A stretch of DNA of 64,000 bases from assembly GCF_001425905.1 (NCBI RefSeq), contig NZ_LMDY01000012.1, positions 373,734 through 437,733 on the forward strand. The letters run 5' to 3'. The translations under genes were made by a program, and so were the position numbers. The notes under the pieces were generated by a model that made no database searches, was not told the DNA's origin, and saw only the letters and a program-made list of their open reading frames with translations. Positions 19,568 to 40,384 of the stretch are shown here, piece after piece (position 1 is the stretch's first letter; every line of letters begins with the position of its first letter). The stretch comes from Methylibium sp. Root1272. Its GTDB lineage: Bacteria; Pseudomonadota; Gammaproteobacteria; Burkholderiales; Burkholderiaceae_C.

Positions 19568-19612
19568 TTCCATAAAACGGAAATGAGATTTCGTCTTCGC
19601 GGCTTTCTTTCC
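19568..19612 (+). promoter_or_regulatory. LysR-type box and promoter element, copy A (hydroxyquinol operon)
   Basis: TTCC-ATAAAAC-GGAA is an inverted repeat with the T-N11-A spacing of LysR sites. It continues into ATGAGATTTC and a pyrimidine stretch containing CTTTCTTTCC. It ends 95 bases before the dioxygenase start. Copies with the same order occur at 38114-38159 and 40339-40384 on the minus strand. Confidence 0.6.
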
Positions 19613-19677
19613 GGCTCGGCGCGATTTAACTTTCGAGGTCACAGCGTGGCAGTGATTTCTAGCCGGAGACATAAGGC

Positions 19678-20559
19678 ATGCGCAACATCAACGAAGACAC
19701 CATCACGCAAGCGGTGATAGCCGCGATGTCCGGCTGCACCGACGGACGCCTGACCTCGATCATGACGAGTTTGGTGCAGCACCTGCACTCCTTTGCGCGC
19801 GAAGTAAAGCTCACCGAGGCCGAGTGGGAGCAGGCCATCCGCTTCCTTACCGAGGTAGGCCACATCACCGATGACAAGCGGCAGGAGTTCATCCTGCTGT
19901 CCGACACCCTTGGGTTGTCGACGCTGGTCACGGCACAGAACAATGCCAAGCCGCCCGGTTGTACCGAGGCGACGGTGTTTGGCCCATTCTTCGTCGAGGG
20001 TGCGCCTTGGTTCGAGTACGGGCAGGACATCGCCAACGGTGCGCGAGGCGAGCCCTGCTTCGTCAGAGGCCAGGTGCGCGGCATCGATGGCCGGCCGATC
20101 TCCGCGGCCGTGATCGATGTTTGGCAGTCGGACGATGCCGGCCATTACGACGTTCAGTACGCGGGTTCGGGGGCCGAGTTTGAGCACCGCGCACGCGGTC
20201 GATTCCGCAGCGGTGCGGATGGGCACTTTCGTTTCCGCTCGATCCTCGCTCAGCCTTACCCGATCCCACATGACGGTCCGGTGGGGCGCATGCTGGACGC
20301 CCTAGGGCGGCATCCCTGGCGACCTGCCCACCTGCACTTCATGATCGAGGCGCCAGGCTACGAGAAGCTGATTACGCATGTCTTCCGCGACGGCGATCAG
20401 TACCTCGACTCGGATGCCGTTTTCGGCGTCCGCTCCACCCTCATTGCGGACTGGAAGCGCCACGATCCCGGCGTGGCGCCCGATGGACATGACTTGGCGG
20501 TGCCTTACTACACCCTCGAGTTCGACTTTGTGCTCAACCCGTCCCGGGAGAAGCAATGA
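19678..20559 (+). CDS. Hydroxyquinol 1,2-dioxygenase (intradiol, Fe(III))
   Basis: It opens the ring of 1,2,4-trihydroxybenzene between the adjacent hydroxyls, giving maleylacetate. The protein has 293 residues, normal for the family, with an N-terminal helical dimerisation region. The iron ligands are visible as two tyrosines (Y157 in DDAGHYDVQ, Y194 in QPYPIPHDG) and two histidines (H218 and H220 in RPAHLHFMI). The context (maleylacetate reductase, flavin hydroxylase, CoA-transferase) favours hydroxyquinol over catechol as substrate. CGGAGACA precedes the ATG. It is the first gene of the operon and overlaps the next by four bases. Confidence 0.93.
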   Translation: MRNINEDTITQAVIAAMSGCTDGRLTSIMTSLVQHLHSFAREVKLTEAEWEQAIRFLTEVGHITDDKRQEFILLSDTLGLSTLVTAQNNAKPPGCTEATVFGPFFVEGAPWFEYGQDIANGARGEPCFVRGQVRGIDGRPISAAVIDVWQSDDAGHYDVQYAGSGAEFEHRARGRFRSGADGHFRFRSILAQPYPIPHDGPVGRMLDALGRHPWRPAHLHFMIEAPGYEKLITHVFRDGDQYLDSDAVFGVRSTLIADWKRHDPGVAPDGHDLAVPYYTLEFDFVLNPSREKQ

Positions 20560-20864
20560 TTCGGCACATCGTCATGTGGCGGGTCGCAGGTGAGACCCCG
20601 GAGGCCGTGAGTTCTGCGAAGGCAACCGTCAAGCACGAATTTGAAGCCCTGCGGGGACGCATCCCGGGAATGCGCCGCCTCGATGTGGGGATCGACGTCA
20701 GTGGCGTGGACTATGCGTGCGATGCTGTCCTGGTGGCGGACTTCGACTCGCCAGGAGCCCTGGAGGCGTATGCCACGCACCCCGAGCACCTGCGAGTTCG
20801 CAAAGCCCTTGGCTCGCTGCGCACATCGCGTCACCAGGTCGACTACGTGGTTGACGAAATGTGA
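20556..20864 (+). CDS. Dabb-family (stress-responsive A/B barrel) small protein
   Basis: A protein of 102 residues beginning MIRHIVMWRV, the typical first strand of dimeric alpha/beta-barrel (Dabb) proteins, and ending with DYACDAVLVADFDS and HPEHLRVR elements of the same fold. It overlaps the dioxygenase stop by four bases (ATGA) and the reductase start by four, so it is translationally coupled on both sides. Some Dabb proteins are enzymes such as polyketide cyclases, while others have no known activity. Its place between dioxygenase and reductase suggests handling of a ring-cleavage intermediate; this is inference. Confidence 0.85.
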   Translation: MIRHIVMWRVAGETPEAVSSAKATVKHEFEALRGRIPGMRRLDVGIDVSGVDYACDAVLVADFDSPGALEAYATHPEHLRVRKALGSLRTSRHQVDYVVDEM

Positions 20865-21958
20865 GGGGACTCGCCTTGCAAAGCCTTCCGTCATTTGTCT
20901 ATCAAGCGCGCCCTGCTCGCATCGTCTTCGGGCCCGGGAGCTTGCAGGACCTTGAGCGTGAGGTGCTAGCGCTCGGGGCCGAGCGCGCGCTTGTTTTGAG
21001 CACGCCGGGCCAGCGTAAGCTGGCAGAGGCCCTCGCTGACCGCCTCGGATCGCGTGCCGCAGGCATCTTTGATCGCGCCGTTATGCACGTGCCGATCGAG
21101 GTGGCCCAGGAGGCGCGTGAGATGGCCCGCGTGCGGCGCGCCGACTGTGCCATCGCGATCGGCGGCGGCTCCACGATCGGTCTGGGCAAAGCCATCGCGT
21201 TGGACAGCGCGCTGCCCATCCTTGCTATCCCGACCACCTATGCCGGTAGCGAGGTCACACCGATCTACGGCATCACGGAGGGCGGCACCAAGCGCACTGG
21301 CACGGATCTGCGCGTGCTCCCGAAGACAGTGCTCTACGACCCAGCGCTGACACTTGGTTTGCCTGTCAATCTGTCGATCACCAGCGGCATCAACGCGATC
21401 GCGCATGCGGCCGAAGGCTTGTATGCGCGCGATGCCAATCCTGTCATTGACCTGATGGCGGAAGCGGGCATCCGCGCCTTCGCGATGGCCTTGCCCAGGA
21501 TTCGTGCCGATGCCGCGGACATCGAAGCGCGCAGCGGCGCGCTCTACGGAGCATGGCTGTGCGGAACCGTGCTGGGCAATGTTGGCATGTCGCTGCATCA
21601 CAAGCTCTGCCACACCCTCGGCGGGAGCTTTGATCTGCCGCACGCGCAGACGCACACGGCCGTGCTGCCACACGCGCTGGCCTACAACGCACCTGCTGCG
21701 CCGGATGCGATGCGGCGTATTGCTCGTGCGCTCGACGCGGCCGATGCTCCGCGTGGCATCTACGACCTGGCGCAAAACAACGGCGCGGCGGTGGCATTGC
21801 GCGACCTGGGCATGCTCGAGTCCGATCTCGACCGGGCCGCCGACATCGCGATCGCCAACCCCTACTGGAACCCGCGCCCTATCGAACGCGCTGCGTTGCG
21901 CCAGCTCTTGCAGGCGGCGTTCGACGGCGCGCCCCCCCACGTGGGAGGCTACCGCTAA
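20861..21958 (+). CDS. Maleylacetate reductase (iron-type alcohol dehydrogenase family)
   Basis: It reduces maleylacetate to 3-oxoadipate with NAD(P)H. The protein has 365 residues and the family's N-terminal start (FVYQARPARIVFGPGSL), the dinucleotide motif AIGGGSTIGLGKA and a histidine-rich metal region (GMSLHHKLCHTLGG, LPHAQTHTAVLPH). These features separate maleylacetate reductases from general alcohol dehydrogenases. The start is a GTG overlapping the Dabb stop. It directly follows the ring-cleavage step and so completes the hydroxyquinol route to 3-oxoadipate. Confidence 0.93.
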   Translation: MRGLALQSLPSFVYQARPARIVFGPGSLQDLEREVLALGAERALVLSTPGQRKLAEALADRLGSRAAGIFDRAVMHVPIEVAQEAREMARVRRADCAIAIGGGSTIGLGKAIALDSALPILAIPTTYAGSEVTPIYGITEGGTKRTGTDLRVLPKTVLYDPALTLGLPVNLSITSGINAIAHAAEGLYARDANPVIDLMAEAGIRAFAMALPRIRADAADIEARSGALYGAWLCGTVLGNVGMSLHHKLCHTLGGSFDLPHAQTHTAVLPHALAYNAPAAPDAMRRIARALDAADAPRGIYDLAQNNGAAVALRDLGMLESDLDRAADIAIANPYWNPRPIERAALRQLLQAAFDGAPPHVGGYR

Positions 21959-22033
21959 GCACTCGCCGACGCCAAGAGAGCGATCGATCGGGGCGCTGAA
22001 CCGGCAGCACTCCACAACTACAGGAGACATACG

Positions 22034-23680
22034 ATGGAAACCAAGTCGACATCCGGACAAGAGGATTCGCCGCAGGCTTACGACGTGGCCGTGATTGGCT
22101 ACGGCCCGACGGGTTTGGTGGCCGCGTCAATGCTGGCTCAGGCCGGCCGCAGGGTCGTCGTTATCGAGCGTTGGCCGACGATGTACGGCTTGCCGCGACT
22201 CACCCACATCGATGGCGAGACCGCGCGCATCATCCAGGCATGCGGTGATGTGACTCGCGCGTTGCGCGACGCGAGTCCGATCGAGACTTACCACTATCGC
22301 AATGCCGCTGGCGAGTTGCTGATGGAGATCAACTGGAATGAGCGGCAGTGCGGCTATCCGCACTTTTCGATCTACCAGCCCGACATCGAGGACGCCATCC
22401 ACGAGCGGGTGGCGCAGCATGCCAACGTGGAGCTGTTTCGCGGCTGGGCAGCGGTTGCCCTCGAGCAGGGCTCCGACGACGTGTCGATCACGATCCAGCG
22501 TACGAACGGCGTGCGCGACGACCAATGGACCGAACGGCCTAGGCAATTCAAGGCCAAGTATGTGCTGGGAAGCGATGGCGCCAACAGCTTCGTGCGCCGG
22601 GCGCTGGGCATCGAGCGCACCGACTACGGCGTCAACGAACGCTGGCTCAACCTCGATTCCGAGAACAAGGGCGAGGGCGGCGACCCCTTCAAGCTGCTGA
22701 CCATCTTCTGTGACCCCGCGCGCGGTCATATGTACATGCCCATCGGCAGCAAGCGCACCCGCTTCGAGCTGCGCGTGCTGCCGAGCGAAGAGACCGCGTT
22801 TTGGGAGGACCAGAACAACGGCTGGACGTGGCTCGAGAAGAAGCATGGCCTGAAGCGGGACGACTTCAAGGTGCTGCGCAACGTCGTCTACACCTTCGAG
22901 ACGCGGATGGCCAATCGCTGGCGCGATGGTCGCGTGCTACTTGGTGGCGATGCTGCTCACTCCATGATGCCCTACATGGGTCAGGGGGCCTGTTCGGGGA
23001 TGCGCGACGGCATCAACCTTGCCTGGAAGCTCGACTTGGTGCTCAGCGGACGCTGTTCGCCGGAACTGCTCGATGCCTACGAGCAGGAGCGCCGGCCGCA
23101 TGTGGGTCAGATCATGGAGATGTCCTTGTTCCTCGGAAAGTTGACGAACGAGGACGACCCCGACAAGGCCGCGGCGCGGGACGAGGCTTTTCGAACAGGC
23201 AACGTGCCGCCCATGCCGCCGTTCCCCAAGATCGAGAACGGCGTCGTGCACCGCGAACCCGACGGTTGCCTGCTCGCTTGCGCCGGCATTCCGGGACCGC
23301 AACCGCGGGTGCGTCAGGGAAGCGTCGAAGGGCTGCTCGACGATGTAGTGGGCCGCGGCTTCCTGCTCGTCACGACTCAGGACCCGGTGCCATTCATACG
23401 TCAGGAGCAGAAGGAGTTCCTCGGTCAGCTCGGCTGCCGCATCGTCGTTATCAGTCCGGACTCGGACGCCGGCGTAGTCGAACTGGACGGCGAGATCTCC
23501 AGCTTCATGCACACGCACGGCATCTGCGCCTATATCGGGCGGCCCGACTTTGTCGTGTTCGGATCAGTCGGCCGGCTCGAGGCGCTGGCGGAACTGGTCG
23601 ACGACCTGCGTGTCAAGCTGCACTGGATCGAGCAGAGCAAGGACGGTGTCACCGTCGGTCGGCTCCAGTGGGTGTCGTGA
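22034..23680 (+). CDS. Group A flavin aromatic hydroxylase (resorcinol-type / MhpA-like)
   Basis: An FAD-dependent NAD(P)H hydroxylase of 548 residues. It has the N-terminal FAD site (GYGPTG, residues 22-27), a DG motif (GSDGANS) and the second FAD contact (GGDAAHSMMPYMGQGACSG). A C-terminal thioredoxin-like domain is typical of MhpA/PheA relatives. In this operon the expected reaction is ortho- or para-hydroxylation of a resorcinol-like phenol to hydroxyquinol. ACAGGAGACATACG precedes the ATG after a 75-base gap. Exact substrate choice cannot be read from sequence. Confidence 0.9.
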   Translation: METKSTSGQEDSPQAYDVAVIGYGPTGLVAASMLAQAGRRVVVIERWPTMYGLPRLTHIDGETARIIQACGDVTRALRDASPIETYHYRNAAGELLMEINWNERQCGYPHFSIYQPDIEDAIHERVAQHANVELFRGWAAVALEQGSDDVSITIQRTNGVRDDQWTERPRQFKAKYVLGSDGANSFVRRALGIERTDYGVNERWLNLDSENKGEGGDPFKLLTIFCDPARGHMYMPIGSKRTRFELRVLPSEETAFWEDQNNGWTWLEKKHGLKRDDFKVLRNVVYTFETRMANRWRDGRVLLGGDAAHSMMPYMGQGACSGMRDGINLAWKLDLVLSGRCSPELLDAYEQERRPHVGQIMEMSLFLGKLTNEDDPDKAAARDEAFRTGNVPPMPPFPKIENGVVHREPDGCLLACAGIPGPQPRVRQGSVEGLLDDVVGRGFLLVTTQDPVPFIRQEQKEFLGQLGCRIVVISPDSDAGVVELDGEISSFMHTHGICAYIGRPDFVVFGSVGRLEALAELVDDLRVKLHWIEQSKDGVTVGRLQWVS

Positions 23681-23696
23681 TGATGGAGATCGAACG

Positions 23697-24788
23697 ATGA
23701 CGACCGCGGTTTCCTCGGCGACGCAGGCCCTTCAGCGTGCAATGCCAATTACGCGACTGCTTGACTGCGGGGTGGATCATGCCGATGCCGTCGCCCTGTT
23801 TCAGCGCACCACCGCCGGTGAGGATTGGCACAGCGCGGCCGAGTCGCTGGCGAGTGCACAACTAGAGCGAGCGGCCGCAGCGGCAACAGCAGGGCATCTC
23901 ACAACGGCCACTGAGGCGCAGTCGATGGCGATCGCCAACCTGTTGTTCGCGCAGATGGCGTTCAACGATGACGACCCACGACGCGTAGCGCTGTATGACC
24001 AGCTCGTGCAGGCCGCCAGGCAGCTGTCTGATTGGTCGGACAAGCGCATCGAGCGTGTCGAACTACCGTTCGAGCACGGTCGATTGATCGGCTGGCTGGT
24101 GCGCCCCTGGTCGGGCCGGGCTTCCGGCACGGTCTTGCTGTTCGGCGGCCAGAGCGGTTGGGGCATGGCCTACTTGCCGATCGCAAAGGCACTGGCGCGG
24201 CGAGGCCTGGCCACCTTGCTAGCCGAAGGCCCAGGTCAGGGTGAGACGCGCATGAAGCACCGCATCTTTCTTGATGTCGATGTGACAGCGGCGTACCGGC
24301 AGTTCATCACGTACATCGTCGCAGACCCAAGCCTTGGCGCACCGGGCATCTGGGGCAACAGCATCGGTGGACTGTGGGCGGCAAGTACGGCAGCGGCTGA
24401 CGATCGTGTCCGGGCCTGCTGCGTCAATGGAGCGCAGGCATTGCCGAGGTTGTTGGCGTACCGGACCTTCCAGGAGCAAGCCGCCGCAATGCTGGGTGTC
24501 AATGACGAAGCAGCGGTCACCGCGAACTTCGAGCGGCTGAGTTTTCGCGCCGGGCGCGACCGCATCACCTGCCCGTTGCTGGTGCTGCACGGCGGCGCTG
24601 ACCCACTGATCACGCTTGAGGATCAGCAACCCTTCCTCGACGCGGCGGCGACCACCGACAAGACGCTGCGCTTCTGGCCCGACGGAGAGCACACGATCTA
24701 CAACCACGCGGCCGAGCGGACTGCGGTCGTGGCCGACTGGTTTGTCGATCGCTTTGCACAGATCCAGCACCCCAGAGGCTGCGAATGA
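23697..24788 (+). CDS. Alpha/beta hydrolase of the C-C hydrolase (DHPON hydrolase-like) group
   Basis: A hydrolase of 363 residues with a long helical N-terminal region before the catalytic domain, as in 2,6-dihydroxypseudooxynicotine hydrolase and FrsA-like proteins. The likely triad is S222 (GNSIGG), D302 (GGADPL) and H332 (DGEHTIYNH); the spacing suits that group. Those enzymes cut a C-C bond between a polyhydroxylated ring and a ketone side chain. Here the gene sits between a ring hydroxylase and a CoA-transferase with a four-base overlap downstream, so I infer removal of an acyl side chain from a resorcinol-like ring. GGAGA precedes the ATG at 23697; the longer open frame upstream is not coding. 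Confidence 0.8.
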   Translation: MTTAVSSATQALQRAMPITRLLDCGVDHADAVALFQRTTAGEDWHSAAESLASAQLERAAAAATAGHLTTATEAQSMAIANLLFAQMAFNDDDPRRVALYDQLVQAARQLSDWSDKRIERVELPFEHGRLIGWLVRPWSGRASGTVLLFGGQSGWGMAYLPIAKALARRGLATLLAEGPGQGETRMKHRIFLDVDVTAAYRQFITYIVADPSLGAPGIWGNSIGGLWAASTAAADDRVRACCVNGAQALPRLLAYRTFQEQAAAMLGVNDEAAVTANFERLSFRAGRDRITCPLLVLHGGADPLITLEDQQPFLDAAATTDKTLRFWPDGEHTIYNHAAERTAVVADWFVDRFAQIQHPRGCE

Positions 24789-25489
24789 TCTCCAAGATCT
24801 GCGCCACTACGGTTGAAGCGCTTCAGGGCATCACCGATGGGTCCACGGTGATGATTGGCGGCTTCGGCGGGGCTGGGCAGCCTGGGGAACTGATCGATGC
24901 GCTGATCGAGCAAGGTGCGCGTGATCTCACCATCGTCAACAACAACGCAGGCAACGGAGAAACCGGCCTGGCCGCGCTGCTCAAGGCGGGGCGGGTGCGC
25001 AAGATCATCTGCTCGTTCCCGCGTCAAGCCGACTCGCAGGTGTTCGACAGCCTGTACCGCTCGGGCAAGATCGAGCTCGAACTCGTGCCGCAGGGGAACC
25101 TGGCCGAGCGTATCCGCGCCGCCGGCGCCGGTATCGGCGGTTTCTTCACGCCCACCGGCTACGGCACCGACCTGGCCAAAGGCAAAGAGACGCGCGAGAT
25201 CGGCGGGCGAATGTACGTGCTCGAGCCACCAATTCACGCCGACGTGGCACTGATCAAGGCCGAACGCGGCGACCGTTGGGGCAATCTCGTCTACCGCAAG
25301 ACCGCGCGCAACTTCGGGCCGGTGATGGCCATGGCTGCCAAGCTGACGGTCGCCTCGGTGCATGACGTGGTCAATCTCGGCGAACTCGATCCAGAAGCGA
25401 TCGTCACGCCCGGCATTTTCGTGCAGCGCGTCGTCAAGGTGCCGCGTACGCCCACCGGGCCTGCCGGGTTCAAGCAGCAGACGACGTAG
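24785..25489 (+). CDS. pcaI: 3-oxoadipate CoA-transferase, subunit A
   Basis: The alpha subunit (234 residues) of a family I CoA-transferase, which moves CoA from succinyl-CoA to 3-oxoadipate. Marks are the glycine-rich MIGGFGGAGQPGELIDAL near residue 23, NNNAGNGETGLAALL and the GGFFTPTGYGTDLAKGKE loop. It overlaps the hydrolase stop by four bases and lies just before the beta subunit. Assignment to 3-oxoadipate rather than acetoacetate rests on the pathway context and similarity to PcaI/CatI. Confidence 0.92.
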   Translation: MISKICATTVEALQGITDGSTVMIGGFGGAGQPGELIDALIEQGARDLTIVNNNAGNGETGLAALLKAGRVRKIICSFPRQADSQVFDSLYRSGKIELELVPQGNLAERIRAAGAGIGGFFTPTGYGTDLAKGKETREIGGRMYVLEPPIHADVALIKAERGDRWGNLVYRKTARNFGPVMAMAAKLTVASVHDVVNLGELDPEAIVTPGIFVQRVVKVPRTPTGPAGFKQQTT

Positions 25490-25498
25490 GGAAATGTG

Positions 25499-26134
25499 AT
25501 GCAGCGACTTAACCGTGATCAGATGGCCGCGCGCGTTGCGAAAGACATCCCGGAGGGCTCATACGTCAACCTGGGCATCGGTCTGCCCACGCTGGTGGCC
25601 AACCACCTGCCGCGTGAGCGAGAGATCTTCCTGCACAGCGAGAATGGCTTGCTCGGCATGGGGCCGGCTCCTACTGCGGGCGACGAAGACTACGACTTGA
25701 TCAACGCCGGCAAGCAGCCGGTGACCTTGCTGCCCGGCGGTGCCTACTTCCACCATGCCGACAGCTTCGCGATGATGCGCGGCGGGCACTTGGACATCTG
25801 CGTGCTCGGCGCCTTCCAGGTTTCGGTGAGTGGCGATCTGGCCAACTGGCACACGGGCGGCGCTGATGCGATCCCCGCCGTGGGCGGCGCGATGGACCTG
25901 GCAATCGGTGCGAAGAAGACCTTCGTCATGATGGAACACCTCACCAAGAGCGGTGCCAGCAAGCTTGTCGAGCGCTGCGCCTACCCTCTGACTGGCATCG
26001 GTTGCGTCAGCCGCATCTACACCGATCTGGCCGTGCTCGCCGTCACGCCGGCTGGGCTCGAGGTGGTCGAGATCTTCAATGGCCTACCGTTCAGCGAACT
26101 GCAACGGATCAGCGGCGTAAGTCTGCGAGCATAG
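25499..26134 (+). CDS. pcaJ: 3-oxoadipate CoA-transferase, subunit B
   Basis: The catalytic beta subunit (about 211 residues). The glutamate that forms the CoA thioester lies in HSENGLLGMGP near residue 48, and YVNLGIGLPTLVAN and the GGAMDLAIGAKK motif are family hallmarks. GTG 25496 and ATG 25499 are adjacent possible starts; I use the ATG. Pairing with the upstream alpha subunit is normal. The product, 3-oxoadipyl-CoA, is the substrate of the next gene. Confidence 0.93.
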   Translation: MQRLNRDQMAARVAKDIPEGSYVNLGIGLPTLVANHLPREREIFLHSENGLLGMGPAPTAGDEDYDLINAGKQPVTLLPGGAYFHHADSFAMMRGGHLDICVLGAFQVSVSGDLANWHTGGADAIPAVGGAMDLAIGAKKTFVMMEHLTKSGASKLVERCAYPLTGIGCVSRIYTDLAVLAVTPAGLEVVEIFNGLPFSELQRISGVSLRA

Positions 26135-26230
26135 AGGCGAGTCGCACAGACTTCCAGGATGCGACGCAGGCGCCAGGGCGTTGCGAGGATGTTGAGTGCG
26201 GCGAGTGGGTCACACGAAATTCGAGAGATC

Positions 26231-27436
26231 ATGAGCGCTCAATCCTTCATCTGCGATGCCGTTCGCACTCCCTTCGGCCGCTACGGCGGTGCGTTGTCGA
26301 GCGTGCGCGCCGACGACCTCGGCGCGGTGCCGATCAAAGCGTTGATGGAACGCAACCCAAAGGTCGACTGGGCTGCTGTGACGGATGTTCTGTTCGGATG
26401 TGCCAACCAGGCCGGGGAGGACAACCGCAACGTTGCGCGCATGAGTCTGCTGCTCGCTGGGCTGCCGGATATCGTGCCGGGCGCGACCATCAACCGTCTG
26501 TGTGGTTCGGGTCTCGACGCACTAGGCACGGCCGCGCGTGCGATCAAGGCTGGCGAGGCAGAACTGATGATCGCCGGCGGCGTCGAGAGCATGAGTCGTG
26601 CGCCATTCGTCCTGCCGAAGGCCGAGAGTGCGTTCTCGCGTACCAATTCGATCCAGGACACGACGATCGGCTGGCGTTTCGTAAACAGGCTGATGAAGGA
26701 GCGCTACGGCGTCGATTCAATGCCCGAGACAGCCGAGAACGTAGCGGTCGACTTCAAGATCGAGCGTGAGGCGCAGGACCGCATGGCGCTGATGTCGCAG
26801 TTGAAGGCCGTCGCGGCGCAGAAGCGCGGCTTCTTCGATGCCGAGATCGTGCCCGTCACGGTTCCGCAGAAGAAGGGCGACGCGATCGTCGTTACCAAGG
26901 ACGAGCACCCTCGAGAGACATCGCTCGAGGCTCTGTCCAAGCTGAAGGGCGTGGTCAAGCCAGAGGGCAGCGTGACCGCCGGCAACGCCAGCGGCGTCAA
27001 CGACGGCGCTTGCGCGTTGCTGTTGGCAAGTGAAGCCGCGGTGCGGATCCACGGCTTGACGCCGCGCGCACGTGTGCTCGGCATGGCCACCGCCGGGGTA
27101 GCACCGCGCATCATGGGCATCGGCCCTGCACCCGCCACGCGCAAGGTGCTCGAACTAACGGCTTTGGCACTGTCGCAGATCGACGTGATCGAGCTCAACG
27201 AAGCCTTCGCAGCGCAGGGCCTGGCGGTGTTGCGCGACCTGGGCTTGGACGACGACGATCCGCGCGTCAACCCCAACGGCGGTGCGATCGCTTTGGGGCA
27301 CCCGCTGGGTGCGAGTGGGGCCCGGCTCGTGACAACGGCGATCAACCAACTCCACACCAGCGGCGGTCGCTACGCGCTGTGCACGATGTGCATCGGTGTC
27401 GGCCAGGGCATTGCGCTTGTGCTCGAGCGTGCCTGA
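26231..27436 (+). CDS. pcaF: 3-oxoadipyl-CoA thiolase
   Basis: It cleaves 3-oxoadipyl-CoA with CoA to succinyl-CoA and acetyl-CoA. The protein has 401 residues, with active-site cysteine C91 in INRLCGSG, the histidine motif GHPLGASGARL and the second cysteine in CTMCIGVGQG. The start MSAQSFICDAVRTPFGRYGG is characteristic of PcaF rather than of general acetyl-CoA acetyltransferases. I chose the ATG at 26231; the frame is open further upstream but the added residues are unlike the family. It completes the pathway to central metabolism. Confidence 0.95.
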   Translation: MSAQSFICDAVRTPFGRYGGALSSVRADDLGAVPIKALMERNPKVDWAAVTDVLFGCANQAGEDNRNVARMSLLLAGLPDIVPGATINRLCGSGLDALGTAARAIKAGEAELMIAGGVESMSRAPFVLPKAESAFSRTNSIQDTTIGWRFVNRLMKERYGVDSMPETAENVAVDFKIEREAQDRMALMSQLKAVAAQKRGFFDAEIVPVTVPQKKGDAIVVTKDEHPRETSLEALSKLKGVVKPEGSVTAGNASGVNDGACALLLASEAAVRIHGLTPRARVLGMATAGVAPRIMGIGPAPATRKVLELTALALSQIDVIELNEAFAAQGLAVLRDLGLDDDDPRVNPNGGAIALGHPLGASGARLVTTAINQLHTSGGRYALCTMCIGVGQGIALVLERA

Positions 27437-27477
27437 CCGCACGGCCAGTCATCCAGGCCGCTAACTAGAAGAATCCG

Positions 27478-29772
27478 ATGAGTGAGACCCTGAAGGACAG
27501 CGCGCTCGACTACCACCGCTTTCCGACGCCCGGAAAGATTGCCGTGATGCCCACGAAAGCGATGGCCACCCAGCGCGACCTTGCGCTCGCGTACTCACCG
27601 GGTGTAGCCGAGGCCTGCTTGGCCATCGTCGACGATCCGTTTGAGGCCAGCAGCCTTACCGCGCGCAGCAACCTGGTTGCGGTAGTCACCAACGGCACCG
27701 CCGTGCTGGGGCTCGGGGACATCGGCCCGCTTGCGAGCAAGCCGGTTATGGAGGGCAAGGGCTGCTTGTTCAAGAAGTTCGCTGGCATCGACGTGTTCGA
27801 CATCGAGCTCGACGAGAAGGACCCTGACCGCCTTGTCGAGACGATCGCCCGAATGGAGCCGACATTCGGTGGCATAAACCTTGAAGACATCAAGGCGCCG
27901 GAGTGCTTCTACATCGAGCGCCAGTTGCGCGAACGCATGAAGATTCCGGTCTTCCACGATGATCAGCATGGCACGGCCATCGTGGCCGCCGCCACCGTGC
28001 TGAACGCGCTGCAACTCGTGGACAAGCCGCTGGCGAACGTCAAGGTAGCTTGCTCGGGCGCCGGCGCGGCCGCAATCGCTTGCCTGGATCTGCTGGTCAG
28101 TCTAGGGGTGGAACGCCGCAACGTGTTCATTGCCGACAGCAAGGGAGTGGTGCATGCCGGCCGCACCGGGCTCGATGCGAGTAAGGCTCGCTACGCACAA
28201 GTCACCGCACTGCGCACTCTGGCCGACATCTGCGCTGGCGCAGACGTCTTCTTGGGCCTGTCGACCGGTGGCGTGCTCAAGCGGGAATTGGTCGCCAGCA
28301 TGGCGCGCCAGCCGATCATCCTCGCGATGGCCAATCCAGTTCCGGAGATCCTGCCCGAGGAAGCGTTGGCCGCACGACCAGACGCGATTGTTGGCACCGG
28401 CCGCTCGGACTACCCGAACCAGGTCAACAACGTTCTTTGCTTTCCGTTCATCTTTCGCGGTGCTCTCGACAGTGGCGCTACGACGATCAACGAGGCGATG
28501 AAACTGGCCGCGGTGCGGGCCATCGCTGAGCTGGCTCACGCCGAGGTTCCCGAGACGGTGGCTCGGGCGTATGGTTCGAGCGTGCTGCGATTCGGCCCGC
28601 AGTACCTGATACCTAAGCCATTCGACCCACGTCTCATCGAGGTCGTGGCGTCGGCCGTGGCCGAGGCTGCAGCCGCAAGCGGCGTGGCGTCGCGTCCGAT
28701 TGTCGACATAGAGGCTTATCGCAGGCGCCTGCGCCAGTTCGTGTACCGGTCAGGAAACGCGATGCAGCCCGTGTTCGCGGCGGCGCGCGCGGGCGGTTCA
28801 CTCAAGCGGGTCGCGTATGCCGAAGGCGAGGACGAACGGGTGCTGCGCGCGGCGCAGGTGGTGGTCGACGAGGCACTGGTGCGGCCGGTACTCATCGGGC
28901 GCCAGGCCGTCATCGCCGAGCGCATTGACCAGCTCGGACTTCGACTGGTGTTCGGGGCGGACTACGACGTGATCGATCCGAACCATGCGGGCTTGGACGG
29001 AGAGTTGATTCAACGCTATTACGAGTTGGTTCGTCACCGCGGTGTGACGCCGGCGCTGGCCTTCGCCGATGTGTCGACCCAGCCGAGCCTGCTGGCGAGC
29101 CTCCTGCTGCGTCAAGGACAAATTGATGCGATGCTGTGCGGCGTTCACGGGCGCTACCACCAGCACCTTAGCCATGTGCGCGAGGCGATCGGCTTGCGTG
29201 TTGGATGTAGCAGCTTCGCGGCTATGCAGATGCTTATGTTGGCGGATCGGCAGCTCTTCATCTGCGACACCCACGTGCATCAGGACCCGGACGCGCAGCA
29301 GTTGGCCGAGATCACGCTGCTGGCCGCCCAGGCGGTTCGTGGCTTCGGGCAGGTGCCGCGTGTGGCACTGCTATCGCATTCGAGCTTTGGAAGTTCGGAA
29401 GCACCGTCGGCGTTGAAGATGCGGCGGGCCCTCGAGTTGATCCGTGCTCGGGACGGGTCGCTCGAGATCGAGGGGGAGATGCGCGGCGACGCCGCCCTGT
29501 CCGGCGAGGTGCTGGAGCGTGAGTTCCCTGGGGCGGCGCTCCACGGCGAGGCCAACTTGCTGGTGATGCCCAACGTCGACGCGGCCAACATTTCCTACAA
29601 CCTGCTGCGCATGGCCTCGGGCGGGGGCATCACGGTTGGGGGCATCTTGCTCGGTGCGGCTAAAGCGGCACACATCTTGACTCCATCGTCCACGGTCCGG
29701 CGCATCGTCAACATGACCGCAGTGGCCGCTGCGGATGCGACCGCATTGCGTGAGCAGCCTGGTGGTGCCTGA
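27478..29772 (+). CDS. maeB: NADP-dependent malic enzyme (MaeB type, with C-terminal PTA-like domain)
   Basis: It decarboxylates malate to pyruvate with NADP reduction. The 764 residues comprise an N-terminal malic domain ([39 protein letters not shown]), a Rossmann cofactor domain ([16 protein letters not shown]) and a C-terminal phosphotransacetylase-like domain starting near residue 430. That last domain is usually regulatory and not catalytic in MaeB. It sits 41 bases after the thiolase gene. In this operon it could turn succinyl-CoA-derived C4 acid into pyruvate and supply NADPH for the hydroxylase. A copy in a catabolic operon is unusual but not unknown. Confidence 0.93.
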
Positions 29773-30091
29773 GCTGGCCAATCTCCCGGTGCAGCACCCT
29801 CGAGCGTATGGCGATCGCCATGGCATGCGCGTCGACTGCCACGTCGAAAGCGTGAGGCCGGCTCGGCAAGCTCTTCAGTGCGGGTTCACGGACAGCTCAA
29901 AGAGTTGGTACGAACTGATTGCTGCGTCGCGTCGAAACGAGTCGACTGGCTGACAGTCGTGGATGCTCGATGAGGTCATAGCGCCAGCGGCGACTCGCAT
30001 GCGTCGCCGGCCTATGACAAGCGTGCCACACCTGAGGGTGTTGTCCAGCGACTTTCTACGCGCTGGCTTGTGAATCGCCTTGGAGGTTGAG
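29773..30091. other. Gap between malic enzyme and thioesterase genes
   Basis: About 319 bases with only short, family-less open frames. I see no clear promoter box or terminator. The thioesterase start region with GGAGG lies at the right end. The thioesterase could therefore be a separate transcript or the end of the long operon. Confidence 0.4.
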
Positions 30092-30568: not shown

Positions 30569-30749
30569 CAAGGCAAGGTGCGCCCGAGGGTGATCTCCAG
30601 CGGCACACCGCTACGGTCGTTGTGCGCGAGCGTACGGCTCTCTATCCCGTCGCCGCTTCATACGCAATGAGGAGCAGCCACTGGCCATCCTGGACGCCGT
30701 CCGCAGAAGGGGGTGGCGTCCCGGAGATCCGTCGTCGCTGCGAACGCTC

Positions 30750-31706: not shown

Positions 31707-31717
31707 GACTTCAGCGC

Positions 31718-32896
31718 TCAGTGGAACGTGACCTCGAGCGTGTCGAGACTGCGTACAGTGTTCGTGATATGCATGGAGTGTTGACCAACCTCAATGCGCT
31801 CGACCTGCGTTGCGATCGCAGTCAACAGTGCGGTGGCCTCGAGTCGCGCCAGCGCCTGGCCTGCGCAAACATGCAGTCCGTGGCCGAAGGCGACGTGCTC
31901 CGCCGAGTGCCTCTTGATGTCGAAGCGATCGGGATTCGTGAACTTTCGCTCGTCGCGGTTCGCCGATGCGTACAGGACCGCCACGCTGGAGCCTGCAGGC
32001 AACGTGACGCCGGACAGTTCGGTGTCCCGGCTGGTTACGCGCTTGAAGGCTTGCACCGGAGACTCGATGCGAAGCACCTCGTTGTAAGCGCGCGCGACCA
32101 ACACCGGCTCGGCCCTCAGAGCCTGCCACTGGTCCACGTTCTGTCCCAGCAGCCGGACGGCGCTGGCAATCGAGCTGATCGTGGTGTCGATCCCAGCTAC
32201 AAGATAAGCCGCCAACAGCCGTGGACACTGGTCCCGTCGGATCACGCCGCGCTCCGCCGCGTCGTACAGCGCGGCGCCCAGGCTGCCCTCGCGTAGGCGA
32301 CTCGGATCCTTATCCAACCACTCGATGTACTCGAAGCATTCGCCGAACACCGGAAGCGATCGCTGATACCGCTCGTTCGCTGGCCCCATCACGTTGAAGC
32401 TGGCGTGACCCCAGTCCAGTAGCCTGTCGCGACCGTCCTGCGGGATGCCAATCAACTCAGCGACGATGGTCAGGGGGAAGACCCGCGCCAGATCTCGCAT
32501 GCCATCAAAGGTGCGCCGCATCTTCAGCGATGTGATCAGGCTGTTGGCCTGCGATTGCACATGGCCTTGGAGGTCGCGCATGGCCTGCGGTGTCAATTTC
32601 TCACCGACGGCCGCTCGCAGCGCTGTATGGTCCGGCTGATCGCTCTGAATGATCGTGCCGGCAAAGGCGTTGTTCAGAAAGTCGTTGAAGCCGACACCTT
32701 GACTGGAAATGAAAGTACCGTGGTCGTCGAGCACTTGTCGAACTTCGGCATAGCGAGCGCAACAGACCATCTGCAGCTGTTCGATCCACACGACAGGGCC
32801 AGCATCGCGGAGCATTCGGTACGTTGGATAAGGATCCTTCAGCACGGATTCTGAGAAAAGGTCTATGTCGAGGCTTGGGATTCCGAGTGGTTTCAT
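31718..32896 (-). CDS. Cytochrome P450 monooxygenase
   Basis: A soluble bacterial P450 of 392 residues. The heme-binding motif FGHGLHVCAGQALAR, the I-helix oxygen-activating region AGIDTT and the ExxR motif (YNEVLRIESP) are all present and in order. Electrons should come from the reductase encoded directly downstream. Likely work is hydroxylation or O-dealkylation of an aromatic or hydrophobic compound feeding the hydroxyquinol pathway; the specific substrate is unknown. The ATG is followed by MKPLGIPSLDIDLFS. It lies 192 bases downstream of the MMPL gene on the same strand and may share its transcript. Confidence 0.95.
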   Translation of the reverse strand: MKPLGIPSLDIDLFSESVLKDPYPTYRMLRDAGPVVWIEQLQMVCCARYAEVRQVLDDHGTFISSQGVGFNDFLNNAFAGTIIQSDQPDHTALRAAVGEKLTPQAMRDLQGHVQSQANSLITSLKMRRTFDGMRDLARVFPLTIVAELIGIPQDGRDRLLDWGHASFNVMGPANERYQRSLPVFGECFEYIEWLDKDPSRLREGSLGAALYDAAERGVIRRDQCPRLLAAYLVAGIDTTISSIASAVRLLGQNVDQWQALRAEPVLVARAYNEVLRIESPVQAFKRVTSRDTELSGVTLPAGSSVAVLYASANRDERKFTNPDRFDIKRHSAEHVAFGHGLHVCAGQALARLEATALLTAIATQVERIEVGQHSMHITNTVRSLDTLEVTFH

Positions 32897-33088
32897 GATG
32901 TCTCCAGGTTTGGACGTCCCCGGCAGGTCCGGATCAGGAAGTAGTTGACGTCAGCAACAAGCGGTAGGTCTGGTTCTTGGATAGGCTGCACGGCCTGGCT
33001 GGTCGCGTGCGCAATGAGTGGGGTAGCCCAGGCGGAGCCATGAACCAGGGAATCGAGTGGGTACCCATGTGGCGCTCGGAAATACTGT

Positions 33089-36624: not shown

Positions 36625-36664
36625 GGTCGCTCCTCACAGCTGCGCGCATACGCCGAGCAGCGTT

Positions 36665-38050
36665 TCAGCGCACACCTTCGCCGGCCAGTGCGTCTCCCGT
36701 GAAGAAGCTGTCGGATAGCCGGGGAATGAACTTCGATGCGTGCGACACCTCGTTGGTGATGTCGTTGGCAATCCAGTCACCCGTCTGCAGGTTGTAGTGG
36801 CCGAAAGGTCCCGACAGAACGCCAGGAAGGTCGGGTGCGACCACATTGACGTACCAGAACGTGCGCCACAGCTGACCCTTCGCGTCCCAGCCGTCAGCCA
36901 GCATCGACTGCCAGCTATCCTCGTCAAAATAGAAGCGACGTTTGGTCATCACATGCCGCTTGCCATCGGCGACAGTTGCCTCGACGACCCAGACGCGGTG
37001 CAGTTCCCAGCGCATCAGGTCCGGATTGACGAAGCGCTCGGACAGCACCTGGTCGTCCTTGGCTGCCAGCAGGAGCCTGTTGTTGTTGTAGGGGATGAAC
37101 ATCTCCTGCTTGCCGACGATCTTCCAGTTGTAGCGGTCCATAGGACCCGAGAAGATGAAGATCTCGTCGAAGTTGGAGACACCCGAGGTCACGAACGAGG
37201 GCGTGTCGTAGGTCGCGTTGGGCAACTTGCGCACACGACGTTGGCCGGTGAGGTACTGCCAGGATGGCCGTCCCGTCGTGGGATCGAGGTTATCGACCAG
37301 GATAAGCGCCTCTCCGGCCTTCTGTGCGGGGCCGTGCGTGGTCAGACGCAGGTAGGCCCATTGGCCCTTGCCGCGCAACTGCTCGGGTGAACCGTCCTTG
37401 TAATAGTAGGGCCACTGCTCCCATTTCTCGGAATCGGAAGCGAGCACCCGTTTGCCGTCGCTGGTGACGATGTAGGTGCGGAACAGCGAGTGCATGGTTT
37501 CGCCCTGCCACCGCAGCATGTGGTTCCACATCACCTCGGTGCCTGACTTCGGGATGGGAAAGGGAATGCCCCCGAAGGCGCTCTCGACGGCATAGCCGTT
37601 GTTGGCGGTTTTGGCGCGCGTGGCGTTCTTGAACGTGTTGTCGTATACCCACTGTGGCGCCATGGCCGTGCGGTGCGTCGGGTAGACGTCCATGCGGTAG
37701 TTCGGATACTTCTTGAACATCGCCTGCTGCCCGTCGTTCAGCCGGTCGACGTACTGCCCCACGTTCTGCGCCGTGATCGAGAGCAGCGGCTTCTCGCCGG
37801 CGAACGGGTCGGCGCGCCTGACCCCGAGCGCGCCAGGGCTACCCGTCGGCGCCCCTGTCCACGCCGGAATGGTTCCGGCGGCGTTGCCGGCCTTCTCGGC
37901 GCCGAGCGGAGTCAATGAGGTCTTGAGCTTGGCCGCCTCGTCGTCTGAGGCGGCTGCGAACACGGACGCGCCCGCGACGAGCAACCCGACAAACAGCCAT
38001 GAGCTGGCGCGCCGGGAGCTGGTAAGGGAACTGCTGGGTGATTTACGCAT
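36665..38050 (-). CDS. DUF1329 protein with a Sec-type signal
   Basis: A periplasmic protein of 461 residues. The N-terminus has positive residues, a hydrophobic stretch (WLFVGLLVAGASVFAAA) and an Ala-x-Ala-like cleavage region, so export is through Sec. This differs from the two Tat-type relatives at 11078 and 15374. The body is classic DUF1329 (FEEIFIF-like block FDEIFIFSGPMDRYNWKI, and EMFIPYNNNRL). It is the first gene of a minus-strand run with YCF48, MMPL, P450 and reductase genes, and a LysR-type box lies 94 bases before its start. Confidence 0.9.
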   Translation of the reverse strand: MRKSPSSSLTSSRRASSWLFVGLLVAGASVFAAASDDEAAKLKTSLTPLGAEKAGNAAGTIPAWTGAPTGSPGALGVRRADPFAGEKPLLSITAQNVGQYVDRLNDGQQAMFKKYPNYRMDVYPTHRTAMAPQWVYDNTFKNATRAKTANNGYAVESAFGGIPFPIPKSGTEVMWNHMLRWQGETMHSLFRTYIVTSDGKRVLASDSEKWEQWPYYYKDGSPEQLRGKGQWAYLRLTTHGPAQKAGEALILVDNLDPTTGRPSWQYLTGQRRVRKLPNATYDTPSFVTSGVSNFDEIFIFSGPMDRYNWKIVGKQEMFIPYNNNRLLLAAKDDQVLSERFVNPDLMRWELHRVWVVEATVADGKRHVMTKRRFYFDEDSWQSMLADGWDAKGQLWRTFWYVNVVAPDLPGVLSGPFGHYNLQTGDWIANDITNEVSHASKFIPRLSDSFFTGDALAGEGVR

Positions 38051-38428
38051 TGCGTTGTCTCCTGGTGTTGTCTGCGGCTGCGTCGTTGCCCCAAAGGTAG
38101 TTCGCCACAGGATGAAGAAAAAGGGCCTTGGACTGAAATGTCAGTTCCGCCTTGAGGAAAAATCATCCGGCACCAACCTTGGCGGCCTAGGCCGGTTGCT
38201 CGTGATCTGATCGAAGCGCGCTCGCTTCCCCGCCCGTTCAAGATGCGCCCCGAGCCCGACCAGGCCCCATCTGTTGGTCAATCAACATTCGCTCGAGGAC
38301 CCGCCGTGCGCGAGTCGTTGCACGCGAGGATGGCCGCGTGCTCGATCGCTGCAATGAAGTCCCGCTTCGAGACGACTGAGCAGTACTGACCCGGTCGATG
38401 AATGGGTAACGCTTGAGCGCTACAGGAT
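38051..38428. other. Gap between DUF1302 and DUF1329 genes
   Basis: The right-hand DUF1302 gene ends here and the DUF1329 promoter begins. It contains regulatory element copy B. Around 38287-38405 on the minus strand a short frame (SVVSKRDFIAAIEHAAILAC) faintly recalls the C-terminus of an IS630-type transposase, but I do not trust it as an assignment. Confidence 0.35.
38114..38159 (-). promoter_or_regulatory. LysR-type box and promoter element, copy B (DUF1329 run)
   Basis: On the minus strand this reads TTCC-TCAAGGC-GGAA, then CTGACATTTCAGTCC, then a CCTTTTTCTTC tract. The order and spacing match copy A at 19568. The box ends 94 bases before the DUF1329 start, against 95 bases for copy A. 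Shared geometry at unrelated genes argues for one regulator. Confidence 0.6.
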
Positions 38429-40066
38429 TCAGAACGTTCGCTGCACCGACAGCGAAACGAAGTTCCTGTCCTTCAGCGACTGGCGGAAGCTGTAGTTGGC
38501 GTTTTCGTCGAGTAGCCCACCAGCTTTGCCGAAGTAGTGCGTGTAGTTGATGCCCGCCTTCCAGGTCTGCTGCACGTCTGCGCTCAGACCGATGCTGAAG
38601 TCGCCGCTCTTGTCCCAACCACCGTTGAACAAGGGGATCACCGACGAGCGGCCCTTCGGGTTGTAGCCAAGTCCGACCGGAATCGTCAGATCTACCCCAG
38701 GGAGTGCCTGGTACAGCGTCGGCATGAACAGCACGCGCAGACCTGTGGCGTCGCGCGTCGCATTGGGGTCAAGCGCCGCGGCGTTCTTGGTGACGCTGGT
38801 GCGCCGATGCCAAGCCACTTCAGCCAGCAACAGGCCGCCGTCCCACAGCGACGTGCGCTCGAGCACATGGACCACCGACACCTGGGCGTGGGCGGTGTTT
38901 CCCACCGGGTAGGCAGGGTCGTTGCTGTTGTTGGTGGTGCCAGGGACATCAACGACCAAGCCACCGTGCGCAACGAGCGAGGCGTTGCGCCGCACCGAAA
39001 CTTCGGCGCCGACGTTGAACGACCCGATCGACTTGGAAGCGCTCATGCCGAACATCCTGGTGCCCTCGTGAAACGCCAGGTTGTAATCGCGGCCAGGTCG
39101 CAGAACGACCGTTCCCAACTTGTCGTGGAAGCGGATCGCGTAGAAGCCGAAGTCGGTGTCCAGTTCCTCGCTGCGCCAGCGCAGTTGCACACCGCCTTGG
39201 CCACTGTTCTTGGCCTCCATGTCACCCGTGCGCGGCACCGGACCGCCCAGGAAAGGAGGCAGGTACAGCTGTTCGCCGCCAACGTCGAGCAAGTCGGCGC
39301 GCGACAGGTAGCTGCCCGAGGCGGGTATGCGGCTGCGTTCCCATTCGAACTGGACGTAGGCACCGAGCGACAGCGTGGGAGAAATCTGGAGCTGGGTCGA
39401 AGCCTGCCCGACCGGACGGATGATCTCCTTGAACTGCGAGCCGGGCACCGTCAGCAGCTTGACGAGGTCAACCGGCGCTTGGCCGCCGGCAATGCCGTTG
39501 TCGCCGAAGAACAAGCTTTCGCCCCACAGCAGCGTGTGTCGGCCGAGGCGGCCCGTGAGTTGCATGTCGCCGAGGTTCGTCTTGCCAAACACGAAGGCGT
39601 CGAGCACCTCGACGTCGCGTCCATGATGTTCACGTGTGGCGCGCGTGAACTCCCCCGGAGGAACCGACGTCGGGTTGGGCACCGCACCGCCGCCGAATCC
39701 GGGGTTGTCGTTGTCGCCGTTGTACACGCTGTCGTACCAGGCGGCCGCACTGATGCGCAGGCCCAGATCACGCTTGTAGACGACGTCGAGTTCGGACAGA
39801 AGATCCAGGCGGTTGGAGATTAGTCCCTTGTCAAAGTTTTGATCCCCATCGTCGAGGTTCGGGTTGTAGGCCGCGATGACCTCGGGCGAGCGGTTCTTGA
39901 CGCGGAACCCCGCGCTGTACTTGAACGTGTTGTCCCAGCGCACCTTGACGTCGCTGTCGGGCGGGCTCAGATCAAGCGCATGAGCACCCGGAGCACATGC
40001 AAGCCAAGCTGCGACCGCGGTCGCGCAAAGGTTGAGGCCTCGTCGGGCGGGGCTGAAATGATTCAT
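38429..40066 (-). CDS. DUF1302 outer-membrane beta-barrel protein, second copy
   Basis: A protein of 545 residues with a signal sequence (cut near APGAHALDLSPP) and a beta-barrel body. It begins with KVRWDNTFKYSAGFRVKNRS and ends in a phenylalanine (LSVQRTF), typical of DUF1302 and of outer-membrane proteins in general. GAGGAGAAGG lies just before the ATG at 40064-40066; the frame is open further upstream but that part is not family sequence. It has its own regulatory element about 300 bases upstream, separate from the DUF1329 run. It probably provides the outer-membrane passage of the transport module. Confidence 0.88.
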   Translation of the reverse strand: MNHFSPARRGLNLCATAVAAWLACAPGAHALDLSPPDSDVKVRWDNTFKYSAGFRVKNRSPEVIAAYNPNLDDGDQNFDKGLISNRLDLLSELDVVYKRDLGLRISAAAWYDSVYNGDNDNPGFGGGAVPNPTSVPPGEFTRATREHHGRDVEVLDAFVFGKTNLGDMQLTGRLGRHTLLWGESLFFGDNGIAGGQAPVDLVKLLTVPGSQFKEIIRPVGQASTQLQISPTLSLGAYVQFEWERSRIPASGSYLSRADLLDVGGEQLYLPPFLGGPVPRTGDMEAKNSGQGGVQLRWRSEELDTDFGFYAIRFHDKLGTVVLRPGRDYNLAFHEGTRMFGMSASKSIGSFNVGAEVSVRRNASLVAHGGLVVDVPGTTNNSNDPAYPVGNTAHAQVSVVHVLERTSLWDGGLLLAEVAWHRRTSVTKNAAALDPNATRDATGLRVLFMPTLYQALPGVDLTIPVGLGYNPKGRSSVIPLFNGGWDKSGDFSIGLSADVQQTWKAGINYTHYFGKAGGLLDENANYSFRQSLKDRNFVSLSVQRTF

Positions 40067-40338
40067 GTCCTTCTCCTCGTGTGGTTGTCTGCTCAGGTGT
40101 CGCAGCGACGCGATTGGTTTGGCCGAAAGCTTGGTCTGTCGTGTTGAGGCAGTCCGGCACGTGGTCGCCGCGTACCGAGGGGTCTCACCACGCCGAGCGC
40201 CGAGCAAAGACCGGTTCAGCGTCCGGCCGCGCAGGCGGCTGAACTCACGTCGTTGTCGCTGATGTCGAGCACCGCGCTTGTCTCCTCGCCCCGCCGCGAG
40301 CTGCGACGAGTGGCGAGGAAGTTAATCTGTCACCGAGC

Positions 40339-40384
40339 GAAGAAAAAGGCGTCGGAAATGAAATGTCATTTCCGATCTTCGGAA
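40339..40384 (-). promoter_or_regulatory. LysR-type box and promoter element, copy C (DUF1302 gene)
   Basis: Read on the minus strand it is TTCC-GAAGATC-GGAA, then ATGACATTTCATTTCC, then GCCTTTTTCTTC. GGAAATGA-AATG-TCATTTCC (plus strand, 40354-40373) is a perfect palindrome overlapping it. It is the closest of the three copies to a symmetric site. It lies about 300 bases before the DUF1302 start, so that transcript would have a long leader. Confidence 0.58.

What the first reader, a model, noticed from the sequence alone, without database searches (positions are those of the whole stretch)
19568..40384. One LysR-type element at three separate promoters of the island
TTCC-N7-GGAA followed by [AC]TGA[CG]ATTTC and a C/T-rich tract occurs before the hydroxyquinol dioxygenase (19568), the DUF1329 run (38145-38159, minus) and the DUF1302 gene (40370-40384, minus). 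Distances to the start codons are 95 and 94 bases for the first two. The spacing fits a T-N11-A LysR site, and a LysR gene is divergent from the first copy. This implies a single regulon joining an aromatic pathway to an undescribed envelope transport module.
Basis: seen in the sequence. Interest (0 to 1): 0.85.

Follow-up and report, generated by a model that had tools for sequence, protein, structure and literature searches.

The report
Hydroxyquinol regulator also switches envelope pump
One bacterial switch protein very probably turns on, together, the genes that break down the aromatic compound hydroxyquinol and a neighbouring membrane pump set; this is predicted from DNA alone, and similar links are already known for other aromatic compounds.

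Summary
TTCC-N7-GGAA-[AC]TGA[CG]-ATTTC lies at 19568 (+), 38159 (-) and 40384 (-) and nowhere else in the 4.2-Mb genome at up to 3 mismatches. A profile built only from promoters beside orthologues of the 18634 LysR in other bacteria finds exactly these three places in the genome up to E 10. The same element sits at the LysR-dioxygenase locus in Burkholderia, Paraburkholderia, Caballeronia and Bradyrhizobium relatives, so it is most likely this LysR's operator. The shared unit is a whole promoter: dyad near -64, C/T tract near -35, TAnnnT -10, Shine-Dalgarno at a near-constant place. Many relatives use two or three copies per cluster. The "undescribed" module is described: DUF1302-DUF1329-YCF48-MMPL is an AmeABCD-type RND cassette, and a published study already puts these four families in the AphS, AphR and AphT aromatic regulons. 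What I found no report of is its capture by a hydroxyquinol LysR, with a CYP199-like P450 behind it. No other genome examined shows that link. Binding and induction are untested. New member of a known kind.

The parts
18634..19557 (-). LysR-type regulator, divergent from the dioxygenase; start codon 10 bases from copy A
   Evidence: Pfam LysR_substrate 148 bits and HTH_1 71.5 bits; nearest paralogue in the genome 38% identical
19568..19592 (+). Copy A of the element
   Evidence: profile 31.6 bits, matrix 50.2 bits
19604..19632 (+). C/T tract (19604-19613) and predicted -10 TAACTT (19627-19632) of promoter A
   Evidence: alignment of the copies; inference for the -10
19678..20559 (+). Hydroxyquinol 1,2-dioxygenase
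   Evidence: best solved relative 1tmx hydroxyquinol 1,2-dioxygenase, 311 bits, against 129 for the best chlorocatechol and 115 for the best catechol enzyme
20556..29772 (+). Rest of unit A: Dabb, maleylacetate-reductase-like, MhpA-like FAD hydroxylase, alpha/beta hydrolase, CoA transferase A and B, thiolase, malic enzyme
   Evidence: Pfam, NCBIfam, PDB relatives; co-transcription inferred
38135..38159 (-). Copy B of the element
   Evidence: profile 28.3 bits, matrix 43.7 bits
38094..38123 (-). C/T tract (38114-38123) and predicted -10 TACCTT (38094-38099) of promoter B
   Evidence: inference for the -10
36665..38050 (-). DUF1329 protein (AmeB-like)
   Evidence: Pfam 447 bits
35491..36624 (-). 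YCF48-like protein (AmeC-like)
   Evidence: Pfam PSII_BNR 72.8 bits
33089..35494 (-). MMPL/RND transporter (AmeD-like)
   Evidence: Pfam MMPL 72 bits; best NCBIfam match HAE3 family at 157 bits, below its cut-off of 352
31718..32896 (-). Cytochrome P450, closest solved relatives CYP199
   Evidence: phmmer 283 bits; 192 bases after MMPL, no own element
30750..31706 (-). Flavin/2Fe-2S reductase, probable P450 partner
   Evidence: Pfam Fer2 52.6 bits, NAD_binding_1
40360..40384 (-). Copy C of the element
   Evidence: profile 29.8 bits, matrix 47.4 bits
40319..40348 (-). C/T tract (40339-40348) and predicted -10 TAACTT (40319-40324) of promoter C
   Evidence: inference for the -10
40216..40272 (-). 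GTG-started 18-codon frame behind promoter C, resembling the dioxygenase start; possible relic of a copied promoter
   Evidence: 17 of 27 bases as in the dioxygenase start; 0.16% of 3694 RTG 27-mers of the window reach this. Local alignment alone is not significant
38429..40066 (-). DUF1302 outer-membrane-type protein (AmeA-like)
   Evidence: Pfam 415.5 bits; start at 40066

Best explanation
The LysR protein of 18634-19557 activates a three-promoter regulon. It binds the TTCC-N7-GGAA dyad (about -64) and the ATTTC and C/T-tract region running towards -35, and with an aromatic inducer it switches on (A) hydroxyquinol dioxygenase through malic enzyme, (B) DUF1329-YCF48-MMPL, probably on through the CYP199-like P450 and its reductase, and (C) DUF1302. 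Copy A lies beside the LysR start codon, so autoregulation is likely. B and C resemble the dioxygenase promoter from operator to Shine-Dalgarno and were probably captured in front of an AmeABCD-type RND cassette. The cassette most likely exports or handles a hydrophobic aromatic substrate or toxic intermediate that the P450, FAD hydroxylase and hydrolase feed into hydroxyquinol cleavage. Shown by sequence: the element, its uniqueness in the genome, its conservation with this LysR, its geometry. Inferred: binding, inducer, direction of transport, substrate, transcript limits, promoter capture.
For: Three exact sites and no other at up to 3 mismatches in the genome. Matrix from 16 foreign promoters: 50.2, 47.4 and 43.7 bits, next unrelated place -5.1. 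Profile from the same alignment: exactly 3 matches in the genome up to E 10, E 6e-7 to 6e-6, rough calibration. With each clade scored by the others, the best place of the locus is within 330 bp upstream of LysR in 64 of 80 loci. In two of three rearranged loci it is directly before the moved dioxygenase. 20 of 32 non-Bradyrhizobium loci hold 2-3 sites, so several promoters per cluster is normal. HTH region 42-57 of 65 residues identical to the window LysR in nine relatives compared. A second DUF1302/DUF1329 cassette at 8577-16849 has no site.
Against: No binding or expression data. Training sites were extracted with patterns partly modelled on the motif; a Bradyrhizobium-only matrix still ranks the three first but with negative scores. 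16 of 80 loci fail the cross-clade test, 11 of them in the 17 Burkholderia-type loci. A 65%-identical LysR on a Paraburkholderia caribensis plasmid shows only a 6.2-bit place. The profile also matches beside a 37%-identical LysR in G330, so it is not perfectly specific. No DUF1302/DUF1329 gene elsewhere was seen with the element. Copy C is 303 bases from the DUF1302 start.
Confidence: 0.9

Rival explanations
1. The element belongs to another regulator, and its place beside this LysR is incidental.
For: Binding has not been shown; about 30 other LysR-like matches exist in the genome (31, its own included).
Against: The element accompanies this LysR or its dioxygenase in many relatives; the closest paralogue in the genome is only 38% identical; no other copy of the element exists in the genome.
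Confidence: 0.05
2. B and C are relics of promoter duplication: they may bind LysR but do not drive the cassette usefully.
For: C is followed by a short frame resembling the dioxygenase start and a long leader; no other genome examined shows the element before DUF1302 or DUF1329.
Against: Operator, tract, -10 hexamer and Shine-Dalgarno are intact in both; B keeps the normal distance to DUF1329; no other typical sigma-70 promoter was found from 29700 to 41000 (0 found; 1.5 expected in shuffles).
Confidence: 0.12
3. Same regulon, but the cassette imports a hydrophobic aromatic substrate instead of exporting it.
For: In Caballeronia-type clusters the extra copies precede ABC transporter and periplasmic binding protein genes, which look like uptake; the cassette is next to catabolic P450 genes.
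Against: AmeABCD of Castellaniella is described as an efflux system giving tolerance (PMC6394551), and PMC6449761 proposes coping with toxic aromatics.
Confidence: 0.35
4. Chance resemblance of three short sites.
For: The dyad alone is only eight fixed bases.
Confidence: 0.005

Closest known systems
PnpR/PnpM LysR-type control of p-nitrophenol operons in Pseudomonas sp. WBC-3 (PMC5603801; abstract and passages seen)
   Same: One LysR-type regulator serves several operons of one aromatic pathway through T-N11-A sites near -65.
   Different: Motif there is GTT-N11-AAC, not TTCC-N7-GGAA; two regulators; no RND cassette in the passages seen.
AphS, AphR and AphT phenol regulons of Betaproteobacteria (Suvorova and Gelfand, PMC6449761; abstract, passages and section 14 seen)
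   Same: COG4447, COG1033, PF07044 and DUF1302 genes are predicted members of aromatic regulons; AphT's motif conforms to the LysR-family T-N11-A consensus.
   Different: Phenol regulators and other motifs; the word hydroxyquinol does not occur in the main text.
AmeABCD of Castellaniella defragrans (PMC6394551; passages and section 11 seen)
   Same: Same four families: DUF1302, DUF1329, COG4447/YCF48, HAE3-type RND.
   Different: Monoterpene island, genes in one cassette; here DUF1302 and DUF1329 are split by a 378-base gap that holds promoter B. Sequence identity to AmeABCD was not measured.
Hydroxyquinol LysR loci of relatives (L031-L110, this study)
   Same: LysR, dioxygenase, Dabb and maleylacetate reductase with the same element.
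   Different: Extra copies, where present and annotated, precede other modules such as ABC transporters; no DUF1302/DUF1329 homologue within 10 kb.

Membership tests
LysR-type transcriptional regulator | N-terminal HTH_1 and LysR substrate-binding domain | tested here: met
   Pfam 71.5 and 148.3 bits, both above cut-off; best solved relative 3hhg
LysR-type promoter | T-N11-A dyad centred near -65, second contact region near -35 | tested here: met
   Dyad axis about -64 from a predicted -10; rule as given in PMC5603801. The start site itself is predicted, not mapped
LysR-type promoter | Regulator binds and activates with an inducer | not testable with these tools
   needs gel shift, footprint and reporter
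AmeABCD-type HAE3 RND cassette | DUF1302, DUF1329, YCF48/COG4447 and MMPL genes together | tested here: met
   Pfam; order split into two units by promoter B
AmeABCD-type HAE3 RND cassette | RND protein belongs to HAE3 | tested here: inconclusive
   HAE3 is the best NCBIfam match but 157 bits is below the 352 cut-off
AmeABCD-type HAE3 RND cassette | Efflux or tolerance function | not testable with these tools
   needs deletion mutants
Hydroxyquinol 1,2-dioxygenase | Closer to solved hydroxyquinol than to catechol dioxygenases | tested here: met
   1tmx 311 bits; best chlorocatechol 129, best catechol 115 bits
CYP199 P450 | Closest solved relatives are CYP199 enzymes | tested here: met
   Top 18 of the 60 listed score 269-283 bits; several of them are named CYP199; next group 170 bits. 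Activity not tested

The most novel reading that the evidence does not exclude
This LysR family works with a portable promoter unit of about 113 bp (operator, -10, leader, Shine-Dalgarno) that gets copied in front of interchangeable transport and upper-pathway modules: ABC transport and Gfo/Idh/MocA or zinc dehydrogenases in Caballeronia-type clusters, an AmeABCD-type RND cassette with a CYP199-like P450 here. The RND cassette would then be a dedicated catabolic partner for a hydrophobic resorcinol-type aromatic, not a general solvent pump.
Probability: 0.3. Interest if true: 0.6.

Novelty: new member of a known kind. Interest (0 to 1): 0.42.

Why it matters
It gives a testable operator, unique in its genome, for a hydroxyquinol regulator of which I found no description in the papers searched, and it ties one AmeABCD-type cassette to a defined pathway. 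That narrows the search for the substrate of a widespread but poorly understood transporter type. The comparison between genera also suggests how such a regulon gains modules, by acquiring copies of one promoter.

Tried and rejected
Chance was rejected. The fourth dyad at 27521 was rejected as coding and without the extension.

Searching the motif with up to 2 mismatches in 300 order genomes gave matches in 67, own genome included; by hand count roughly 90 places against roughly 50 for the reversed control, so mostly noise. Three other family genomes of 150 hold the 14-base core; none shows a homologue of the 17 window proteins used within its 3-kb locus. Of two G133 places, one has none of them and the other only a 27%-identical reductase match. 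Profile matches in G1037 (1 of 369 genomes besides the own) and G229 (1 of 399 besides the own) are partial and without homologues in the 3-kb loci. Samples of over 40 genomes were scored with stricter filters, so weak sites may be lost.

Reading GGAA as an ECF-sigma -35 was dropped on inspection only. Recent block duplication: upstream of the dyad the copies share little. Local alignment of the leaders gave no clear excess: 21 (A-C), 84 (A-B) and 22 (B-C) of 500 shuffles reach the observed score; only the fixed-register comparison of the stub behind C is suggestive, and B shows no such likeness (11 of 27 bases, 26% of window 27-mers reach it). GGAGAC follows 17 of 20 further sites examined, at columns 94-126, so its register supports the copied-unit idea only moderately. 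An att repeat of the tRNA-Ala end was sought in the window and not found. DUF1329 has no relative among solved structures by sequence at E 0.1.

Rows dropped: ten of 80 loci did not fit the extraction patterns (L044, L045, L046, L049, L051, L053, L060, L061, L069, L094); the other 70 were thinned to 16 at 86% identity. Of 113 LysR relatives only the best 80 were returned. Of 58 DUF1329 matches, 30 had loci and were scanned. Of 6 annotated plasmid regions, four hold the cassette.
Full report
OBSERVATION. The three sites are real. In a common register (column 4 = first T of TTCC) the copies align without gaps from the dyad through a C/T tract (columns 40-49) to a TAnnnT hexamer (A TAACTT at 63-68; B TACCTT and C TAACTT at 64-69); GGAGACA follows at columns 101, 101 and 103. 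If transcription starts about 7 bases after the hexamer, the dyad axis (column 11) lies near -64. The 25-base pattern has three matches in the 4,208,257-base genome at up to three mismatches, all exact; the reversed control has two. The 14-base core has three.

IS IT THE LYSR'S OPERATOR? The LysR was sought in the one-genome-per-species collection (84,980 species): 113 relatives, best 80 kept. A dioxygenase homologue lies in the fetched locus in 79 of 80; the exception is on a 6.1-kb contig. In the Bradyrhizobium group the genes next to LysR are Dabb and maleylacetate reductase, with the dioxygenase further on. The element appears upstream of LysR in the MAG L031 and the Pantoea-labelled L032; in Burkholderia-type loci as TTCC- or CTCC-N7-GGAG followed by AACAAAACTCC or near variants; in Caballeronia/Paraburkholderia as TTCC-N7-GGAAATGTCATTTC; and in the Bradyrhizobium group mostly as GGAAAAGAGACTTAC or close variants behind a TTnC-like half.

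With each clade scored only by the others, the best place of the whole locus is within 330 bp upstream of LysR in 2 of 2 (L031, L032), 6 of 17 (Burkholderia type), 8 of 10 (Caballeronia type), 48 of 48 (Bradyrhizobium group, including one record titled Frankia and one Bradyrhizobiaceae MAG) and 0 of 3 rearranged loci: 64 of 80. Ten of the 11 Burkholderia-type failures point to a place just behind the LysR gene, which in eight of them passes 15 bits in the pooled matrix; both Caballeronia-type failures point to a further copy of the same cluster. In two of the three rearranged loci (L060, L061) the best place lies directly before the moved dioxygenase. In the pooled matrix, partly trained on these loci, 80 of 80 have at least one site over 15 bits, and 20 of 32 loci outside the Bradyrhizobium group have two or three. 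Whole-genome pattern searches agree: ten Caballeronia/Paraburkholderia genomes (G458, G459, G461, G463, G465-G470) have 3-10 matches at up to 2 mismatches against 0-1 for the reversed control. A Bosea plasmid LysR locus has a 67-bit site; a Paraburkholderia caribensis one only 6.2 bits.

TEST ON THE WINDOW GENOME. A matrix from 16 of those promoters, none from the window, gives 50.2 (A), 47.4 (C) and 43.7 (B) bits; apart from one-base shadows the next place has -5.1. Leaving out any one clade keeps the three on top. A sequence-only profile of the same alignment finds exactly A, C and B in the genome up to E 10. Caveat: training sites were extracted with patterns partly modelled on the motif. 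A matrix of 47 Bradyrhizobium-group sites still ranks the three first, though with negative scores.

WHAT THE COPIES CONTROL. A: dioxygenase, Dabb, maleylacetate-reductase-like, MhpA-like hydroxylase, hydrolase, CoA transferase, thiolase, malic enzyme. The hydrolase's best solved relative is 2,6-dihydroxy-pseudo-oxynicotine hydrolase. B: DUF1329, YCF48, MMPL, then after 192 bases a CYP199-like P450 and a reductase. C: DUF1302, most likely starting at 40066. These are the four families of AmeABCD (PMC6394551). A second such cassette at 8577-16849 (25-28% identical for MMPL, YCF48 and part of DUF1329; DUF1302 gave no meaningful alignment) has no element, an internal control.

RELATIVES AND ORIGIN. 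Of 399 family genomes, six besides the own have a profile match. Five hold the LysR (56-74%) and dioxygenase (61-73%) beside it; the sixth only a 37% LysR. Five congeners have none. Two of the five have a second match before Dabb and maleylacetate reductase. In Caballeronia-type clusters, extra copies precede periplasmic binding protein, ABC transporter or dehydrogenase genes. No DUF1302/DUF1329 gene elsewhere was found with the element: 30 DUF1329 loci (28 without a place over 0 bits, two with at most 2.1) and four plasmid cassettes. Three of those four have a LysR gene nearby, in two divergent from DUF1302; the fourth has an IclR gene. G+C is 0.642 (LysR to malic enzyme) and 0.618 (P450 to DUF1302) against 0.707 to the right and 0.656 to the left, and an integrase and tRNA-Ala adjoin. 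This fits acquisition but does not prove it.

MECHANISM AND KNOWN SYSTEMS. LysR-type regulators usually bind a T-N11-A site near -65 and a second site near -35, and PnpR serves several operons (PMC5603801, passages); the layout here fits. PMC6449761 already assigns the four cassette families to AphS, AphR and AphT regulons and suggests a role in coping with toxic aromatics. Searches for hydroxyquinol with LysR (listings only, 20 of 22 and 15 of 29 shown), for LysR with maleylacetate reductase and PnpR and for DUF1302, DUF1329 or AmeABCD showed no description of this regulator or motif in their listings; most subscription journals are not in the library. The substrate guess, a resorcinol-type ketone, is inference from the enzyme relatives.

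VERDICT. Observation confirmed; single-regulon reading strongly supported by sequence; the module is not undescribed. New member of a known kind.

Noticed in passing
8577-17724 (+): A second, divergent MMPL-YCF48-DUF1302-DUF1329 cassette followed by an alpha/beta hydrolase lies upstream of the LysR gene and carries no copy of the element.
   Followed up: partly
40911-42428: Tyrosine integrase next to tRNA-Ala(cgc), 182 bases apart, an island-type junction; no repeat of the tRNA end was found in the window.
   Followed up: partly
40352-40375: Copy C contains a 10-base-pair inverted repeat TCGGAAATGA-CATT-TCATTTCCGA, listed by the terminator scan; it may be an extra half-site pair.
   Followed up: no
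40216-40272 (-): An 18-codon GTG frame behind promoter C resembles the start of the dioxygenase gene, a possible trace of promoter capture.
   Followed up: partly
30080-30568 (+): 4HBT thioesterase gene between the two converging units.
   Followed up: no
L034, L036-L041, L043, L049 (just behind the LysR gene): A further copy of the element behind the LysR gene; in L034 a gene start with GGAGAC follows it. The genes there were not identified.
   Followed up: no
L188, L189, L190: Caballeronia/Paraburkholderia hydroxyquinol clusters carry sugar-type ABC transporters and Gfo/Idh/MocA dehydrogenases near the same element, hinting at a cyclitol- or glycoside-like precursor.
   Followed up: no
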